From Akkermansia muciniphila (GTDB lineage Bacteria; Verrucomicrobiota; Verrucomicrobiia; Chthoniobacterales; Chthoniobacteraceae): DNA of 35,754 bases. The stretch covers positions 1 through 35,754 of the forward strand of contig CAMCIN010000007.1 of NCBI GenBank assembly GCA_945874745.1, given 5' to 3'. Numbering within the stretch: the first letter of the stretch is position 1; each line of letters opens with the position of its first letter. Positions 28,939 to 35,754 of this stretch are shown in pieces. A model generated the notes under the pieces. The model saw only the letters and a list, made by a program, of their open reading frames with translations. It made no database searches and was not told where the DNA came from. The position numbers and the translations under genes are program-made.

Positions 28939-29259
28939 GACGAATACCCCTAAGCAGCTAACGTTCCGCACCGCCAACCGGCCCCTCTTGCTCCTGGCGG
29001 GGGTGGAGATGGATAGCCGAGCGGCAGCGAGGCTTTGACCCTCTCGACATTGCGTAGTGACTGTCGGAGAAGAAGTGGAGCGGGTGAAGGGAATCGAACC
29101 CTCGTATGCAGCTTGGGAAGATTGGGCGGAGTGTTTATTTTGAGCGGTTTATCAAAACCGGCCACGTTTTAGGCCACGCCATTTTGCCCTTATGCAGGCT
29201 GATCGCCAGGCACTTACAGCTTTAGTGTTCGCAGCTTTTGGGTCATTAAAAGCTGAGTA
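28939..29259. other. gap containing the tRNA fragment at the island boundary
   Basis: No protein gene was recognised here. The only clear structure is the partial tRNA-Gly at 29076-29120. To its right the sequence is somewhat richer in A and T and contains no obvious integrase remnant. Confidence 0.5.
29076..29120 (-). repeat. 3' part of a tRNA-Gly(CCC) gene: probable attachment site of an integrated element
   Basis: Read on the minus strand, this is the second half of a tRNA: anticodon loop ttcccaa (anticodon CCC), the 3' anticodon-stem strand gctgc, a 4-base variable region, the T-arm gaggg-ttcgatt-ccctt, the acceptor strand cacccgc, the discriminator T, and an encoded CCA. The 5' half (D-arm and the matching gcgggtg acceptor strand) is absent, because the sequence departs from tRNA just 5' of the anticodon loop. 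Such a 3' tRNA fragment is the classic attR-type remnant left by a tyrosine integrase. Since the fragment keeps the tRNA 3' end on the left, the original chromosome continues left (queD, leuA) and the integrated DNA lies to the right. Confidence 0.8.
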
Positions 29260-29883
29260 CTAGGGTGTCCGTGCAGCAGGTTCCAGTATGACCTGCACCG
29301 CGTGGTGAACCCGAGTCGAACCCGGCGAAGGCCATTCCGATTTGGGTGCGGCATCAGACCGCCCGGCCCGCTTGATGGCCTCCCGAATCCGAGGCCAGAG
29401 CGCCTCCACGGGATAGCTGGCTTTGGCGTAGGTTCCCAAACAGTCGGTTCCGCCCAGCAAACCGGAGAGGTTTTCCCCAGCAACAGACGGCCAGGCGTCG
29501 CGAAAGTGCAGCAACAGCCACAACTCAAAACAGGGCTTGCTCGCCGCCAGCCGAAAATCCCCTTGGACCTGTTCTTTCAGCACGTCGCTGCGCTCAGAGA
29601 CCGTCCACCGGTCGGTGTCGACCACCAGCCATGCCGAATCCCCCTCGATCCAGTCGCGGTTCCGCCGCCGCTTGGCCAGTTCTTCCCGGAGCCGCTTCAA
29701 GACCCGTGTCGGGTTGCTTTCACCGGGACGCCCCGCGGAGACCAGCACCGTCACGACCTCGCGACAACGATGCCGCAACATCTCGAAGTAAATCGCCTCG
29801 GTCTTCTCCCCCTCCGTCGCAAGCAGCACTACGGGTTTGCGGATCCGCGCGGGAGAGGGGCGCTGATAGCGGGTTGTTTTCAT
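29260..29883 (-). CDS. RloB-like protein (possible AbiLii-type partner)
   Basis: This 207-residue protein fits the RloB family (PF13707), Toprim-like proteins that pair with an RloA-type ATPase. VVLLATEGEKTEAIYFEMLR (residues 18-37) has the conserved acidic EGExTE motif, AWLVVDTDRW (84-93) carries the DxD pair (Asp89, Asp91), and SKPCFELWLLLHF (115-127) is another hallmark. Together these may form a metal-dependent nuclease-like centre. It starts five bases after the ATPase gene stops and is clearly in one operon with it. The pair resembles the lactococcal abortive infection system AbiL (AbiLi plus AbiLii). The family assignment is by recognition of motifs; the defence role is inferred. Confidence 0.8.
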   Translation of the reverse strand: MKTTRYQRPSPARIRKPVVLLATEGEKTEAIYFEMLRHRCREVVTVLVSAGRPGESNPTRVLKRLREELAKRRRNRDWIEGDSAWLVVDTDRWTVSERSDVLKEQVQGDFRLAASKPCFELWLLLHFRDAWPSVAGENLSGLLGGTDCLGTYAKASYPVEALWPRIREAIKRAGRSDAAPKSEWPSPGSTRVHHAVQVILEPAARTP

Positions 29884-29888
29884 CCGGA

Positions 29889-31244
29889 TCAGATCGTTTG
29901 GTGAATTCCCGCTCGAAAGTACGGACGGTGCTTTACGACAGGCACCCCGCCAAAACGGCCTGTGAGGTAGTTCCGCTGCAGTTCGGTGTCGAACCGCAGA
30001 TCCTTGAACTCGCCCAGGGATCTCAGCGTCGTCGCACCGGCGTCGTTCTTTTCCGCAAGCCAGATTTCGTCCCTTCGAAGCAGCTCCTGGTCCATGAGCG
30101 TGGCATCGTGGGTCGTCACAATCAGCTGGGAGCGCCCTTCCGGGGTGCGCCCGTCAAGGAAGGCCGCCAATGCCTCGCGTGCCAGGTGCGGATGCAGGCT
30201 CCGGTCCAGTTCGTCTATGACATACACATGGCCAGGGCCCTTACGCGACAAGGCATGAAACGCCACGGACAGATCCAGATAGCGAAGCGTGCCGTCGGAT
30301 TCCTCATCCAGTCGGAATACTGCTCCTCCCGGTCCCGAGCCTGCGTGTCGTATCCGCAAGGTTGATACCCGGATGTCGCCGTCCTTCAACCTAACGAAGA
30401 ACCGCATCCCATGACGCTTACCGGTTCGAATCAGCTTCACCTCGTTGGGACCGAGGTTGGACCGCAGTTCATCTTTGAGCCCGGCAGGCAGGTCGCTCAT
30501 TTCCTCAAGCGATTTCTCATCGAGTTCCAAGTCCTCGATGCCAAGATCCGCCGCCTTCAATCGCTCCAGTAAAAACTCGCGGAACCCCTCGCGACCGGAC
30601 GCTTCTTCCTCCAGAAAAATCGGCATCGAACCCGGGTCAATGATGGTGATCCCGTGTTCAAAATACTGGAAAACGGGGTCAAGTTCGCGAACGGCCCGCT
30701 GCCGTGCCTCGGCGAGAAACGGTTGGTTAGGGCGCGTCCCCTCGGCCACGAAACGGAGGAAGTCGCGGCGGGACTGGCTTTCCGCAAGTTTGAGCAGGCC
30801 CTTGAGTTCAAACCCGTCCGCGCGGCTGAAAATCACCTCTTCCGAGGTTCGGCGCACCTCGACAAGCTCCTCCCGGAGGACCGCGGAGTCTCCGATGGAA
30901 ATGCCGTACCGGTAGAGCTTGTCGTTGGAGGCTACAAAATCAATTTCCAGTCGGGTTGGCTCCATGGAAGCGCCCGGACATAACCGAAAGGGATGACGCA
31001 GGATGGCGTGGCCGGCTTGGATTCCGAGCGAAACCAGTTGCTTCAGAAAGCCTATGGCCTCGGTGAGGTTTGTTTTTCCCGCTGCATTGGATCCGTAGAT
31101 CAGCGAAATCGGAAGCACGCTGGAGGAAAGGGCTGGGTGCTTGGCTAGACGCTCCGAGTGCCGACGCTCGCGCCCCGCGGTGAGTAACAGCGCCGCTGGT
31201 GCGTGGAAGGAACGAAAATTGGCGACCTCAAAACGGACGATCAT
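29889..31244 (-). CDS. AAA-family ATPase, RloA-like (possible AbiLi-type defence protein)
   Basis: This 451-residue ATPase starts MIVRFEVANFRSFHAPAALL, the typical N-terminus of RecF/OLD/RloA-like ABC-type ATPases (AAA_15/AAA_21). The Walker A motif is GSNAAGKT (51-58). RIRHAGSGPGGAVFRLDEES and DGTLRYLDLSVAFHAL fit the signature region, Walker B is VYVIDELDRS with Asp344 and Glu345, and the switch His is at 379 in TTHDATLMDQELLRRDEIWL. The rest is a helical insertion (about 150-280). It is the first gene of a two-gene operon with the RloB-like gene. ATPase and Toprim-like pairs of this type occur in several phage defence systems (AbiL, PARIS and related). Activity here is inferred from the gene pair. 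Confidence 0.85.
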   Translation of the reverse strand: MIVRFEVANFRSFHAPAALLLTAGRERRHSERLAKHPALSSSVLPISLIYGSNAAGKTNLTEAIGFLKQLVSLGIQAGHAILRHPFRLCPGASMEPTRLEIDFVASNDKLYRYGISIGDSAVLREELVEVRRTSEEVIFSRADGFELKGLLKLAESQSRRDFLRFVAEGTRPNQPFLAEARQRAVRELDPVFQYFEHGITIIDPGSMPIFLEEEASGREGFREFLLERLKAADLGIEDLELDEKSLEEMSDLPAGLKDELRSNLGPNEVKLIRTGKRHGMRFFVRLKDGDIRVSTLRIRHAGSGPGGAVFRLDEESDGTLRYLDLSVAFHALSRKGPGHVYVIDELDRSLHPHLAREALAAFLDGRTPEGRSQLIVTTHDATLMDQELLRRDEIWLAEKNDAGATTLRSLGEFKDLRFDTELQRNYLTGRFGGVPVVKHRPYFRAGIHQTI

Positions 31245-31417: not shown

Positions 31418-32578
31418 ATGCTCGAACGCCAGCTGCAACCCACGCTTCACCGCTTCGCCAAGTCGTTTCCCGTGGTGGCGATCACCGGTTCACGGCAGTC
31501 GGGCAAAACCACCCTGGCCCGGAGTTTTTTTTCGGATTTAAGATACGTCAGCCTCGAAGACCCGTCGGAGTTCGCCTTTGCGCAGGAGGATCCCAAGGGG
31601 TTTCTGGCACGCTTTGCCAAGGGGGCCGTTTTTGACGAGGCCCAGCGTTGGCCTGCTCTTTTTTCGTATCTGCAGGGAATGGTCGACGAGGACCGGACCC
31701 CCGGGCGTTTCGTGCTCACGGGTTCGCAACAGTTCGGGTTGCTGGCTGGAATCACCCAATCTCTCGCGGGCCGCGTGGGGATGACGCGCTTGCTGCCGCT
31801 TTCTCTGGTTGAGATTCCTGCGGAACGCGTCGGAAGTTTGGATGAAATGCTCCTCCGGGGCGGCTATCCCGCGCTGTATGCGGGCTCCGTGGAGTCGAGT
31901 GACTGGCTGGCGAGTTATGTCGCCACCTACGTGGAGCGGGATGTGCGGCAGGTGCTGGAGGTGCGGGACTTGATGGTGTTCCAGAGATTCCTCAGGCTTT
32001 GCGCAGCGCGGACCGGGCAGCTGCTGAATCTAAATGCCCTGGCCGGCGAGGCTGGCATTTCTCACAGCACGGCCCGGGCATGGATGTCGGTCTTGGAGTC
32101 GAGCGATATTGTTTACCTGCTCCCCCCGTACCACAGAAACTTCGGCAAGCGGTTGGTCAAGACGCCCAAACTTTATTTCATGGATGTGGGCCTGGCCTGT
32201 TGGCTTCTGGGCATCCGCTCGCCCGAGGTCCTGTGCGTGCACCCGAGCAGGGGGGCGTTGTTTGAAACGCTGGTGGTGAGCGAGTTTCTCAAACAGCGGT
32301 TCAATCTTGGAAAGCCGGCGGATCTCTATTTTTGGCGGGACAACAGTGGTCTCGAAGCGGATCTGCTGTTTGAGCGGGACGGGCGATTGCAGATGGTGGA
32401 AATCAAGTCAGGCCAAACCGTGACGACCGACTACGTCCGCGCCGCCCAAAAAACGACCCGCTTTGCGTCAGAGGAAGCCTTGATGCCCTGGCTTATCCAC
32501 GGTGGTGAGGACGCCTACGAACGCAATGGGGTGCGCGTGTTGGGATGGACATCCTTTTCCAAAGAAAGCCTCTGCTGA
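31418..32578 (+). CDS. ATP-binding protein, AAA_14 plus DUF4143 (copy A)
   Basis: This 386-residue protein has the two-domain layout of the common DUF4143 ATPases: an N-terminal AAA_14 domain (PF13173) with Walker A GSRQSGKT (24-31) and Walker B GAVFDEAQRWP (Asp73, Glu74), RFVLTGSQQFGLLAGITQSL as sensor region, then a helix-turn-helix-like part (NLNALAGEAGISHSTARAWM). The C-terminal DUF4143 domain (PF13635) has LYFWRDNSGLEADLLFERDG and MVEIKSGQT, a PD-(D/E)XK-like nuclease core (E-x-D, then E-I-K). Such genes are frequent in mobile regions; their function is unknown, although nuclease or toxin-like roles have been proposed. The C-terminus RVLGWTSFSKESLC is encoded inside a 51-base sequence that is repeated near 34.3 kb. 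Confidence 0.88.
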   Translation: MLERQLQPTLHRFAKSFPVVAITGSRQSGKTTLARSFFSDLRYVSLEDPSEFAFAQEDPKGFLARFAKGAVFDEAQRWPALFSYLQGMVDEDRTPGRFVLTGSQQFGLLAGITQSLAGRVGMTRLLPLSLVEIPAERVGSLDEMLLRGGYPALYAGSVESSDWLASYVATYVERDVRQVLEVRDLMVFQRFLRLCAARTGQLLNLNALAGEAGISHSTARAWMSVLESSDIVYLLPPYHRNFGKRLVKTPKLYFMDVGLACWLLGIRSPEVLCVHPSRGALFETLVVSEFLKQRFNLGKPADLYFWRDNSGLEADLLFERDGRLQMVEIKSGQTVTTDYVRAAQKTTRFASEEALMPWLIHGGEDAYERNGVRVLGWTSFSKESLC

Positions 32579-32584
32579 GAATGC
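32534..32584 (+). repeat. 51-base direct repeat, left copy (end of DUF4143 copy A)
   Basis: This copy covers the last 14 codons and the stop of the DUF4143 gene plus six further bases. It matches 34335-34385 at 50 of 51 positions in the same orientation; the single difference is C against G near the stop. The sequence on either side of the two copies is unrelated. Confidence 0.95.
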
Positions 32585-32857: not shown

Positions 32858-34036
32858 CTATGAGGAGGAATCCTGCGGCCGCGGCAACGCCTTAAGACGC
32901 TCCATCAGGCGCGACAGCGGAATTGCGGTAATCGCCTCCGCAAGCGGAAATTCATGCTCACCCGGATGTACCACATAGAGCTTCTCCAGCGCGAGGTCCT
33001 GCAGCGCGGTGCGCATGGACTTTGTCGTCCCGGGCTGGTCTGAAAACTTGAACTCGAACCCCAGCCGTCGCCCCCCGTGCAGCAGCAGCAGATCCAGCTC
33101 AGCGCCGCCGTGGGTTCCCCAGAAATACGCGTTCCGATCCCCGCACACCTGCAGAATCTGCTCCAGGCAAAAGCCCTCCCACGAGGCGCCCAGCTTGGGA
33201 TGCCCCTGCAGTGCCGCCACATCGGGAACACCCAGCAGCGCATGCAAAAGCCCGGAGTCCCGCACATAAACCTTAGGCGAGCGGACCTGCCGCTTCTTGA
33301 GATTCTCAAACCACGGCGGAAGTTGTCGCACCACATAGGTGCCACTCAGGATATCGAGATAGCGTCGCGCCGTGGGCTCCGAGGCACCCAATGCCCGCGC
33401 CAGTTCCGCGAGGTTGAGCACCTGTCCATGATAATGCGCAATCATCGTCCAGAAACGCCCCAGCGTGGCCGCCGGAACCTGAATCCCGAACTGCGGGATA
33501 TCGCGCTCCAAAAAGGTCCGACGGAAATCTTCCAGCCACTGCCGGGCCGTAGTGTCATCGGCGGCAAGGTAGGCGCGCGGAAACCCGCCCCGCCACCACA
33601 ACCGCGCCTGCGCATCGGCTCCCAGCTCGGAGAGCGCAAATCCGGTGACATCGATGAACGATACCCGCCCTGCCAGGCTTTCGCTTCCCGCCTTCAGCAG
33701 CGCCGGGGAGGCGCTGCCCAGAATCAGGAAACGCGCCGGCAGATCCAACCGGTCGGCCAACACGCGCAGCAACGGGAACAGATCGGGGCGCCGCTGCACT
33801 TCGTCCAGAATCACCAGCCCTGTCAGGGGGCGCAGTACCAGCTCCGGGTTGGCCAGCCGAGCCAGGTCCGAGGGGGCTTCAAGGTCGAATAGGTGCACCG
33901 GTCCGGAAGTGTCCGCGGCCAGCATCCGCGCCAGTGTGGTCTTGCCCGCCTGGCGTGGCCCTACCAACGATACGATGGGGTTGTCTCGGAGACGACCTCG
34001 GATGGTCTGAAGATAGGCGACCCGCTGCGTGTTCAT
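32858..34036 (-). CDS. ATP-binding protein, AAA_14 plus DUF4143 (copy B)
   Basis: This 392-residue protein is a second DUF4143-type ATPase, clearly different from copy A. Walker A is GPRQAGKT (26-33) and Walker B lies in GLVILDEVQRRPDLFPLLRV. RFLILGSASPALLKAGSESL (sensor) and VTGFALSELG follow. The middle has a winged-helix-like segment (NLAELARALGASEPTARRYL), and the C-terminal part has YFWGTHGGAELDLLLLHGGR and LGFEFKFSDQPG (nuclease-like E-x-D and E-F-K). The ATG at 34036 fits the family start. It is convergent with copy A across a 279-base gap. Two unlike DUF4143 genes side by side are typical of accessory regions. Confidence 0.88.
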   Translation of the reverse strand: MNTQRVAYLQTIRGRLRDNPIVSLVGPRQAGKTTLARMLAADTSGPVHLFDLEAPSDLARLANPELVLRPLTGLVILDEVQRRPDLFPLLRVLADRLDLPARFLILGSASPALLKAGSESLAGRVSFIDVTGFALSELGADAQARLWWRGGFPRAYLAADDTTARQWLEDFRRTFLERDIPQFGIQVPAATLGRFWTMIAHYHGQVLNLAELARALGASEPTARRYLDILSGTYVVRQLPPWFENLKKRQVRSPKVYVRDSGLLHALLGVPDVAALQGHPKLGASWEGFCLEQILQVCGDRNAYFWGTHGGAELDLLLLHGGRRLGFEFKFSDQPGTTKSMRTALQDLALEKLYVVHPGEHEFPLAEAITAIPLSRLMERLKALPRPQDSSS

Positions 34037-34110: not shown

Positions 34111-34419
34111 ATGCCTCAAGCACCAGATTGCCCAAGGCACCGATCCCAGAAAAAGGGGTTGGCGGAAGGGCGTAAACCCGCCCTTCGGGTGGCTTCCGAT
34201 GTGGCCGCCGCCAAGGAAGAGACTGCGGAATACATCCGTTTTCGAGCCTTTGATGATGGGTACTTCTGCGACTTGATCCTCGACTACCTCCAGACCTTTC
34301 ATCAGGGACGCCGGGCCGATTTTGAGCGGCTCCTCGCGTGTTGGGATGGACATCCTTTTCCAAAGAAAGCCTCTGGTGAGAATGCCGATTTCCCGAGCAT
34401 GGACGAATGGCTTCGGTGA
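34111..34419 (+). CDS. possible small hypothetical protein (doubtful)
   Basis: This frame of 102 codons ends 23 bases before the antitoxin gene. No domain was recognised. The later half (RAFDDGYFCDLILDYLQTFH, DFPSMDEWLR) looks more protein-like than the first half, which is rich in Arg and Lys and contains an 8-bp palindrome in the DNA at 34165-34186. The stretch LACWDGHPFPKKAS is read from the 51-base repeat in a different frame from the one used in DUF4143 copy A. It may be the fused remains of two pieces rather than a real gene. Confidence 0.25.
   Translation: MPQAPDCPRHRSQKKGLAEGRKPALRVASDVAAAKEETAEYIRFRAFDDGYFCDLILDYLQTFHQGRRADFERLLACWDGHPFPKKASGENADFPSMDEWLR
34165..34186. repeat. small perfect palindrome (REP-like hairpin)
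   Basis: Eight-base arms gaagggcg and cgcccttc surround a six-base loop. It resembles short palindromes found between genes of related genomes and may be a REP-type or terminator element. Confidence 0.5.
34335..34385 (+). repeat. 51-base direct repeat, right copy
   Basis: This copy matches 32534-32584 at 50 of 51 positions. Here the DUF4143 reading frame (RVLGWTSFSKESLW then stop) is present but unattached to any DUF4143 gene. It therefore looks like a recombination scar or the leftover 3' end of another DUF4143 copy. Confidence 0.95.
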
Positions 34420-34442
34420 CGACCGCGTGGTATTGTAGGCAG

Positions 34443-34718
34443 ATGACTCCGGCAGACATTCGGCTGATGACCGTTCCCGATAAAATCCGGCTCATGGAAG
34501 CCCTGTGGAGGGATCTCTCGGAAGGCGACAAGGTCGTTGAGTCTCCGGATTGGCACGCCGAAGTGCTCGCGGATCGGGTGTCCCGGCTCGCATCAGGTAA
34601 GGACACATTCATTGACTGGGATGTTGCAAAGAAACTCCTCCGTGAAGAATGCGAACAGACAATCCAAGCCGCAGCACGGCAGCCCAGATTCATCCGGGAC
34701 GAGATGACGCGCCTCTGA
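34443..34718 (+). CDS. addiction module antitoxin (unstable antitoxin family), no toxin seen
   Basis: This 91-residue protein resembles the putative addiction module component family (PF09720). Its first 70 residues read MTPADIRLMTVPDKIRLMEA, LWRDLSEGDKVVESPDWHAE, VLADRVSRLASGKDTFIDWD, VAKKLLREECEQ, the typical LMEALWxxL and W-H-x-x-x-L motifs. An extra C-terminal tail (TIQAAARQPRFIRDEMTRL) is unusual, as most members end near the KLL helix. Members usually precede a RelE/ParE-type toxin gene, but no such gene follows here. The ATG at 34443 fits the family start. Confidence 0.75.
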   Translation: MTPADIRLMTVPDKIRLMEALWRDLSEGDKVVESPDWHAEVLADRVSRLASGKDTFIDWDVAKKLLREECEQTIQAAARQPRFIRDEMTRL

Positions 34719-34740: not shown

Positions 34741-35359
34741 AATCTGCGCTCAGGCCTCGAGTGGCCCGAGTGGCTGGCAAAATGGCATTCCTGCCGCCAT
34801 TTTAGGTCGCAAAATGGAGGTCGCGTTTCGTTTTGACCGTCATCGCCTATCATTGCTTTCTACTAGCATCGGCGGCACTGGCAAAACCTCATGGACCCAG
34901 GCCCTTTTTCCAAACACCCCGGCACATCTATCCACTCGCCCCCACCACCCTGCGCAATCTCTCGGTCCGTGCGCCTTTCAGAAGAATTGCCCTGCGGCGA
35001 CATCTACCGTCAGGTCCTCCTCTACGGCGTGACCTGTTTACCCGCTGCGGAGTTTCCTCGCGCTCTGCAACCGGACGGGTTCCCTGGCTGATGTGAGGCA
35101 AGCAAGACTGGACCTTGAGTTCGCCGCCCAGATGTCGCCACGACTTCGGTGCACTCCGCGCTGTGGCCAACAAGCGTTATGCCATAAAAGAAAGGCTCCT
35201 CGGCAGAAACTGTGGGTAAAAGTCGGAAGAAATTGGGGGGCCTCGCTCTCCATTACCCCCCAAGGCTTCGCCGTTGTTAGGGGGGTAATGGAGAGCTTCC
35301 TCCTGTGGTTGCGTTGAGGTATCAACACAGGTGCACGAAACCAAACAAGGAGGTCAGCT
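34719..35359. other. 641-base gap without a recognised gene
   Basis: This stretch separates the antitoxin gene from the ISL3-type transposase. Several open frames overlap, none with a recognisable domain; GGTGKTSWTQALF around 34870-34910 looks Walker-like but has no supporting context. It contains a hairpin (arms aaaatggc and gccatttt, 34779-34803) and the strong 17-bp palindrome at 35245-35296. It may hold remains of older insertions. Confidence 0.5.
35245..35296. repeat. perfect 17-bp inverted repeat with 18-base loop
   Basis: The left arm (35245-35261, gctctccattacccccc) and the right arm (35280-35296) are exact reverse complements, and the loop is aaggcttcgccgttgtta. This can form a very stable stem 64 bases before the proposed transposase start. 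It could be a regulatory or transcription-blocking hairpin in the insertion sequence, or part of its end; the outer boundary of the element was not found. Confidence 0.85.
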
Positions 35360-35754
35360 ATTTCTCTCTCAGTTAAAACCCTCTTCAATGAAGTGCAACC
35401 TTTACGCGGCTTTGTCTGCGAGCACGCACGGCTCGTAAAGCAAGACGATGCACCGATGCGGATTGAAATTCGGCTGCGCCACGCCGCCCGCAGCAAGGCA
35501 ATCTGCCCTTGTTGCTCGCAGCCGGCTGCCGGTTACGACACGCAGCCACAACGGCGCTGGGAGTTCATCCGGCTTTGGGGCATCCGGGTCGAACTCCTCT
35601 ACTGTCCGCGTCGCGTAGAGTGTGACCGTACCCCCGAGTGTGGGATCAAAGTGGAAGCCATGCCGTGGAACGAAGGGAAGCATCCTGCCACACGGGCCCT
35701 GATGGTCTTTCTCTCGCAGTGGGCCCGGCGCATGAGTTGGAAGGAGGTGGCAGG
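35360..35754 (+). CDS. ISL3 family transposase, N-terminal part (runs off the window)
   Basis: The frame is open to the window end (131 codons) and reads LSVKTLFNEVQPLRGFVCEH, IEIRLRHAARSKAICPCCSQ, WEFIRLWGIRVELLYCPRRV and ECDRTPECGIKVEAMPWNEG. This matches the N-terminal zinc-ribbon (zf-ISL3, PF14690, with CPCC and later Cys residues) and following helix-turn-helix of ISL3-type transposases. No ATG lies at the start. A strong ribosome-binding site aaggagg (35347-35353) is followed after six bases by ATT (35360), which gives ISLSVKTLF. A GTG at 35393 is the alternative. The DDE catalytic domain lies beyond the window, so completeness cannot be judged. Confidence 0.85.
   Translation, partial: MSLSVKTLFNEVQPLRGFVCEHARLVKQDDAPMRIEIRLRHAARSKAICPCCSQPAAGYDTQPQRRWEFIRLWGIRVELLYCPRRVECDRTPECGIKVEAMPWNEGKHPATRALMVFLSQWARRMSWKEVA

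What the first reader, a model, noticed from the sequence alone, without database searches (positions are those of the whole stretch)
29260..31244. RloA/RloB-like two-gene operon, a candidate AbiL-type phage defence system
An ABC-type ATPase and a Toprim-like RloB protein are encoded five bases apart and sit in a mobile island, the usual place of defence systems. Both carry intact key motifs (Walker A 51-58, Asp344/Glu345, His379; EGEKTE and D-x-D in the partner). The pair resembles AbiLi/AbiLii, but the lineage is far from the lactococcal examples.
Basis: partly seen in the sequence, partly recalled or inferred. Interest (0 to 1): 0.7.

Follow-up and report, generated by a model that had tools for sequence, protein, structure and literature searches.

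The report
AbiL-type phage-defence gene pair
Two neighbouring genes on a mobile DNA island encode a distant but ordinary member of the known AbiL (RloA/RloB) family of bacterial anti-phage systems: an ATPase that probably senses infection and a probable nuclease that then stops the cell.

Summary
HMMs place both in AbiL: ATPase best hit AbiLi (4e-78), partner best hit AbiLii (1e-21) and Pfam RloB (5.7e-28). The pairing is strongly conserved: 34 of 34 fetched RloB loci from the same family or phylum, and 74 of 78 testable ATPase loci from viral contigs, have the partner adjacent in the same order. A Lactococcus prophage pair annotated 'abortive phage resistance protein' has the same architecture and best HMM hits at 26% ATPase identity. 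The island is real: the displaced 3' half of a tRNA-Gly(CCC) gene (29067-29120) ends it, the intact tRNA lies on another contig followed by primase-polymerase genes, and a relative carries a homologous island end with an MNT/HepT pair in the same slot. Best reading: ATPase sensor or guardian plus Toprim-like nuclease effector causing abortive infection. Membership is well supported; mechanism, trigger and target are inferred. The Toprim fold gained only weak support here. New member of a known kind, low to moderate interest.

The parts
29889..31244 (-). AbiLi/RloA-like ABC-type (AAA_21) ATPase, 451 aa; Walker A 51-58, signature-like S316-x-G318, D344/E345, H351, H379, conserved C-terminal Y426..G429..G432..P435
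   Evidence: Pfam AAA_21 4.8e-31; PADLOC AbiLi 4.1e-78; conservation
29260..29883 (-). AbiLii/RloB-like protein, 207 aa; E24-G25-x-x-T28-E29, D89-x-D91, F119-E120-x-W122, H126; probable Toprim-type nuclease effector
   Evidence: Pfam RloB 5.7e-28; PADLOC AbiLii 1e-21; AlphaFold2 model pLDDT 89; conservation
29884..29888 (-). 5-base gap between ATPase stop and RloB start; two-gene operon
   Evidence: sequence; adjacency conserved in relatives
29067..29120 (-). attachment-site duplicate: displaced 3' half of tRNA-Gly(CCC), 54 bp identical to the intact gene's 3' end on contig C8; one end of the island
29137..29273 (.). island terminus, 85% identical over 137 bp to the terminus of a related island in G010 that carries MNT/HepT instead
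31418..32578 (+). AAA_14 + DUF4143 ATPase, island cargo; PADLOC defence candidate PDC-S01
32858..34036 (-). second AAA_14 + DUF4143 ATPase, island cargo; PADLOC defence candidate PDC-S01

Best explanation
The two genes are a divergent AbiL (RloA/RloB) system carried as cargo at one end of an element integrated in a tRNA-Gly(CCC) gene. The most likely mechanism: the ABC-type ATPase forms an oligomer that holds RloB inactive and senses infection; when triggered it releases or activates RloB, a metal-dependent Toprim-like nuclease (E24, D89, D91 as metal ligands), which cuts an essential nucleic acid (an RNA such as tRNA slightly more likely than DNA), arrests the cell and so aborts phage replication. 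Shown here: gene pair, motifs, family membership, conserved pairing, mobile-element location. Inferred: defence function, trigger, regulation by the ATPase, nuclease activity and its target.
For: HMM placement of both proteins in AbiL; all 29 aligned ATPase relatives hit AbiLi and all 30 RloB relatives hit AbiLii. Fixed partner and order in 34/34 cellular and 74/78 viral-contig loci. Frequent carriage on prophages and plasmids. Same architecture as a lactococcal prophage pair annotated as abortive phage resistance. Conserved acidic residues at the ends of strands 1 and 3 of the model, the Toprim arrangement; in-register but weak profile match to OLD Toprim domains. Literature: AbiL is a bicistronic lactococcal abortive-infection system, and F. 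nucleatum AbiLii is toxic in E. coli (PMC3985639); RloB relates to OLD_TOPRIM by HHpred, and AAA proteins neutralise a paired TOPRIM_OLD toxin (PMC10440598); in PARIS the ATPase AriA sequesters and releases the Toprim tRNase AriB (PMC12409363).
Against: No PDB fold match of the RloB model to any Toprim protein surfaced and the profile match to OLD Toprim has only 10-27% probability. In the one AbiL pair tested as toxin-antitoxin, AbiLi did not neutralise AbiLii, and lactococcal AbiLii was not toxic in E. coli (PMC3985639), so the guardian part of the model is uncertain. No phage data exist for this pair.
Confidence: 0.75

Rival explanations
1. It works as an addiction or stabilisation module of the integrated element (toxin RloB, antitoxin ATPase), with phage defence secondary or absent.
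For: It sits at the very end of an integrated element, where a related element carries an MNT/HepT toxin-antitoxin-like pair instead; AAA/TOPRIM pairs behave as toxin-antitoxin in PMC10440598; AbiLii from F. nucleatum is toxic (PMC3985639).
Against: F. nucleatum AbiLi did not neutralise its AbiLii (PMC3985639); the family is classed as abortive infection on functional data from Lactococcus (cited in PMC3985639 and PMC10440598). The two functions are not exclusive.
Confidence: 0.15
2. Same system, but the effector acts on DNA (degrading phage or host DNA, as OLD or Gabija nucleases do) rather than on RNA or tRNA.
For: The ATPase is of the OLD/PtuA/RecF kind, and OLD-family Toprim nucleases cut DNA (PMC10568477).
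Against: The closest mechanistically solved split ATPase/Toprim system, PARIS, cuts tRNA (PMC12409363). Neither target was tested for RloB.
Confidence: 0.4
3. The ATPase and RloB have a housekeeping role (for example DNA repair), and the defence label is only inherited annotation.
For: Some OLD-type ATPases have non-defence roles (archaeal Cran1, PMC12796447, abstract); the ATPase shares motifs with RecF and SMC.
Against: Patchy distribution (RloB over the cut-off in 4 of 40 genomes of the family and 66 of 388 in the phylum sample) and carriage on prophages, plasmids and this island do not fit housekeeping.
Confidence: 0.05

Closest known systems
AbiL (AbiLi/AbiLii; RloA/RloB), lactococcal abortive infection system
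   Same: Two genes, ATPase first then RloB, adjacent and on one strand; best HMM hits AbiLi and AbiLii; same motifs; mobile-element location.
   Different: Only 26% ATPase identity to the Lactococcus prophage pair; carried on a tRNA-Gly-integrated element; activity untested.
PARIS (AriA/AriB)
   Same: ABC ATPase plus separate Toprim-type effector; the ATPase hits AriA second best (5e-31).
   Different: Effector is RloB (PF13707) with no AriB hit; none of the 40 genomes of the family carries DUF4435 (PF14491), taken from own knowledge to be the AriB family.
Septu / retron Eco7-type PtuA ATPases
   Same: PtuA structures are among the best sequence-profile matches of the ATPase in the PDB (7e-8 for 8ee4).
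   Different: Partner is RloB, not the HNH nuclease PtuB; the PADLOC PtuA hit is weak (about 3e-5).
OLD / Gabija GajA single-chain ATPase-Toprim nucleases
   Same: Same kinds of domains; weak in-register profile match at E and D-x-D.
   Different: Two separate proteins here; no OLD-like_TOPRIM (PF20469) match in this genome.

Membership tests
AbiL (AbiLi/AbiLii) | ATPase matches AbiLi model better than other defence ATPases | tested here: met
   AbiLi 4.1e-78, next AriA 5.2e-31
AbiL (AbiLi/AbiLii) | Partner is a RloB/AbiLii protein | tested here: met
   PF13707 5.7e-28, above cut-off; AbiLii 1e-21
AbiL (AbiLi/AbiLii) | Bicistronic, ATPase upstream and adjacent | tested here: met
   5-base gap; order conserved in 34/34 and 74/78 loci
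AbiL (AbiLi/AbiLii) | Intact ATPase and effector motifs | tested here: met
AbiL (AbiLi/AbiLii) | Protects against phage by abortive infection | not testable with these tools
   needs plating and infection assays
Toprim nucleases (for RloB) | Glu after strand 1 and D-x-D after strand 3 of an alpha/beta fold | tested here: met
   E24 after strand 18-23, D89/D91 at the end of strand 83-89 in a model with pLDDT 89
Toprim nucleases (for RloB) | Structural or profile similarity to known Toprim domains | tested here: inconclusive
   No Toprim chain among the listed Foldseek/VIA rows; hhalign to OLD Toprim in register but 10-27% probability
PARIS (AriA/AriB) | Effector AriB | tested here: not met
   RloB protein gives only the AbiLii hit in PADLOC and only RloB in Pfam
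Septu (PtuA/PtuB) | HNH nuclease partner | tested here: not met
   Partner is RloB, no HNH match

The most novel reading that the evidence does not exclude
This genus carries a family of elements integrated in tRNA-Gly(CCC) whose distal end is a fixed cargo slot in which defence or toxin-antitoxin modules (AbiL here, MNT/HepT in a relative) are exchanged next to a conserved terminus of about 137 bp.
Probability: 0.4. Interest if true: 0.35.

Novelty: new member of a known kind. Interest (0 to 1): 0.2.

Why it matters
It extends the AbiL family to another distant lineage and shows how strictly the ATPase and RloB travel together: RloB occurs over the cut-off in 66 of 388 genomes of the phylum sample, and all 34 loci examined in the family and phylum carry the ATPase. 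The conserved residues (E24, D89, D91, E120, H126 in RloB; a C-terminal Y-x2-G-x2-G-x2-P motif in the ATPase) give direct mutants for working out AbiL, whose effector target I found no report of in the papers searched. The tRNA-Gly island end with exchangeable cargo is a place to look for more such systems in this genus.

Tried and rejected
Single-sequence AlphaFold of RloB was poor (pLDDT 43) and was replaced by a 65-sequence alignment model. Foldseek and VIA searches of the good model gave only generic Rossmann-like rows (best Z 8.0 to a designed protein) and one BFVD RloB-like protein, so they do not decide the fold. PDB sequence searches with RloB and its profile found nothing meaningful. 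Single-protein scans of viral contigs found nothing; alignment-based scans found many relatives. PARIS and Septu membership rejected on the partner. ORF 28950-29165 (minus) is not a gene: it reads through the displaced tRNA-Gly half. I tried to confirm the empty site by finding tRNA-Gly next to the 6-pyruvoyl tetrahydropterin synthase (PTPS) gene in congeners; none of the fetched loci (up to 1.5 kb flanks) has it, so the original flank arrangement stays unproven.

Full report
Observation. Pfam gives AAA_21 (4.8e-31) for the first and RloB (5.7e-28, cut-off passed) for the second. PADLOC gives AbiLi (4.1e-78) and AbiLii (1e-21); the next best for the ATPase is AriA (5.2e-31) and PtuA is far weaker. 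No NCBIfam model passes its cut-off.

Pairing. RloB (PF13707) was found in 5 of 40 genomes of the host's family (4 over the cut-off) and in 67 of 388 genomes drawn from its phylum (66 over the cut-off). In the 30 phylum loci fetched (the best-scoring ones, so not a random sample) and in the 4 family loci other than the window, an AbiLi-like ATPase lies immediately upstream on the same strand, without exception. Alignment-based scans of viral contigs gave 80 ATPase loci (the best 80 of 181 relatives): 74 have RloB downstream, 4 do not, 2 are cut by the contig end. Of 18 RloB loci, 17 have the ATPase upstream and the other begins at the contig end. Annotated records agree: Klebsiella phage ST13-OXA48phi12.1 (ATP-binding protein plus 'RloB domain-containing protein'), a Geminocystis plasmid (plus 'RloB family protein'), a Hymenobacter plasmid ('RloA'), and Lactococcus phage proPhi7 (two 'abortive phage resistance proteins'). 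The proPhi7 pair has the same best PADLOC hits and Pfam RloB; the ATPases are 26% identical. All 29 aligned ATPase relatives hit AbiLi and all 30 RloB relatives hit AbiLii.

Conserved residues. ATPase: Walker A G51-x-N53-x-x-G56-K57, S316-x-G318 (signature-like), D344/E345 (Walker B), H351, Q373, H379, and a C-terminal Y426..G429..G432..P435. RloB: E24, G25, T28, E29, Y32, D89, D91, F119, E120, W122, H126, Y152. The RloB model (pLDDT 89, pTM 0.85) alternates strands and helices, with E24 following strand 1 and D89/D91 ending strand 3, the Toprim arrangement (the arrangement itself is from own knowledge of the fold). Independent fold evidence is weak: no Toprim structure surfaced in the Foldseek or VIA rows, and the profile match to OLD Toprim domains puts E24 on the OLD glutamate and D89-x-D91 on D-x-D, but at only 10-27% probability. 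The relation of RloB to OLD_TOPRIM by HHpred is reported in PMC10440598.

Island. A 54-bp stretch at 29067-29120 is identical to the 3' half of an intact tRNA-Gly(CCC) gene on contig C8 (31825-31898). The orientation puts the element to the right of 29120, so the gene pair lies inside it, next to its end. After the intact tRNA on C8 come an uncharacterised protein, a helix-turn-helix protein and a primase-polymerase. Relatives use the same site: G003 has the same uncharacterised gene after its intact tRNA-Gly, G008 has a tRNA-Gly 3' half beside phage holin and peptidase genes, and G010 has a 3' half preceded by a terminus 85% identical over 137 bp to window 29137-29273 but with an MNT/HepT pair as cargo. 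The similarity stops 14 bases inside the end of the RloB gene, so the AbiL pair looks like exchangeable cargo; this rests on one comparison. That C7 and C8 are the two ends of one element is inferred from the matching att copies and orientation; the middle is not assembled, and tRNA-Gly was not found beside the PTPS gene in congeners.

Mechanism. From the literature: AbiL is a bicistronic abortive-infection system; AbiLii from Fusobacterium nucleatum is toxic in E. coli while lactococcal AbiLii was not, and F. nucleatum AbiLi did not neutralise its partner (PMC3985639). AAA proteins neutralised paired TOPRIM_OLD toxins in two other bacteria (PMC10440598). In PARIS the ATPase AriA holds the Toprim tRNase AriB until a phage protein triggers release (PMC12409363). 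The most likely mechanism here is therefore an ATPase sensor/guardian and a metal-dependent nuclease effector that arrests the infected cell. Whether the target is RNA or DNA is open (I lean slightly to RNA), as is the trigger.

Verdict. A distant but regular member of AbiL. Novelty is low.

Noticed in passing
window 28948-29037: A degenerate copy of a dispersed ~90-bp repeat with roughly 35 further places in the same genome (71-88% identical), possibly a REP- or MITE-like element.
   Followed up: partly
window 31418-32578 (+) and 32858-34036 (-): Two AAA_14/DUF4143 ATPases in the island, both strong matches to PADLOC defence candidate PDC-S01; a 51-bp direct repeat (32534-32584 and 34335-34385) duplicates the 3' end of the first one.
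   Followed up: partly
window 34407-34718 (+): Addiction-module antitoxin-like protein (Unstab_antitox, 1.3e-15) with no recognised toxin gene beside it.
   Followed up: no
window 35245-35296 and 35393-35752 (+): A perfect 17-bp inverted repeat in a stretch that also sits at the ends of contigs C134 and C304 (93% identical), followed by an ISL3-type transposase fragment cut by the contig end: probably the repeat that broke the assembly.
   Followed up: partly
L031 4979-8035 (+): In a Spirochaetaceae MAG, a relative of the ATPase is fused to a D12-class N6-adenine DNA methyltransferase (1019 aa), with no RloB found beside it.
   Followed up: no
L069 (G011:C11:3378-3944): The RloB gene of a congener, next to its AbiLi-like ATPase, holds an in-frame TAA: probably a decayed copy or a sequencing error.
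   Followed up: no
ATPase residues 426-435 and relatives in alignment A2: C-terminal Y-x2-G-x2-G-x2-P motif, nearly invariant in AbiLi-like ATPases; a candidate contact for RloB.
   Followed up: no
L048 (G005:C76): In a congener tRNA-Gly(CCC) is followed after about 116 bp by tRNA-Ala(CGC), perhaps the arrangement before element insertion; in the window's genome the att half is followed by PTPS instead.
   Followed up: partly
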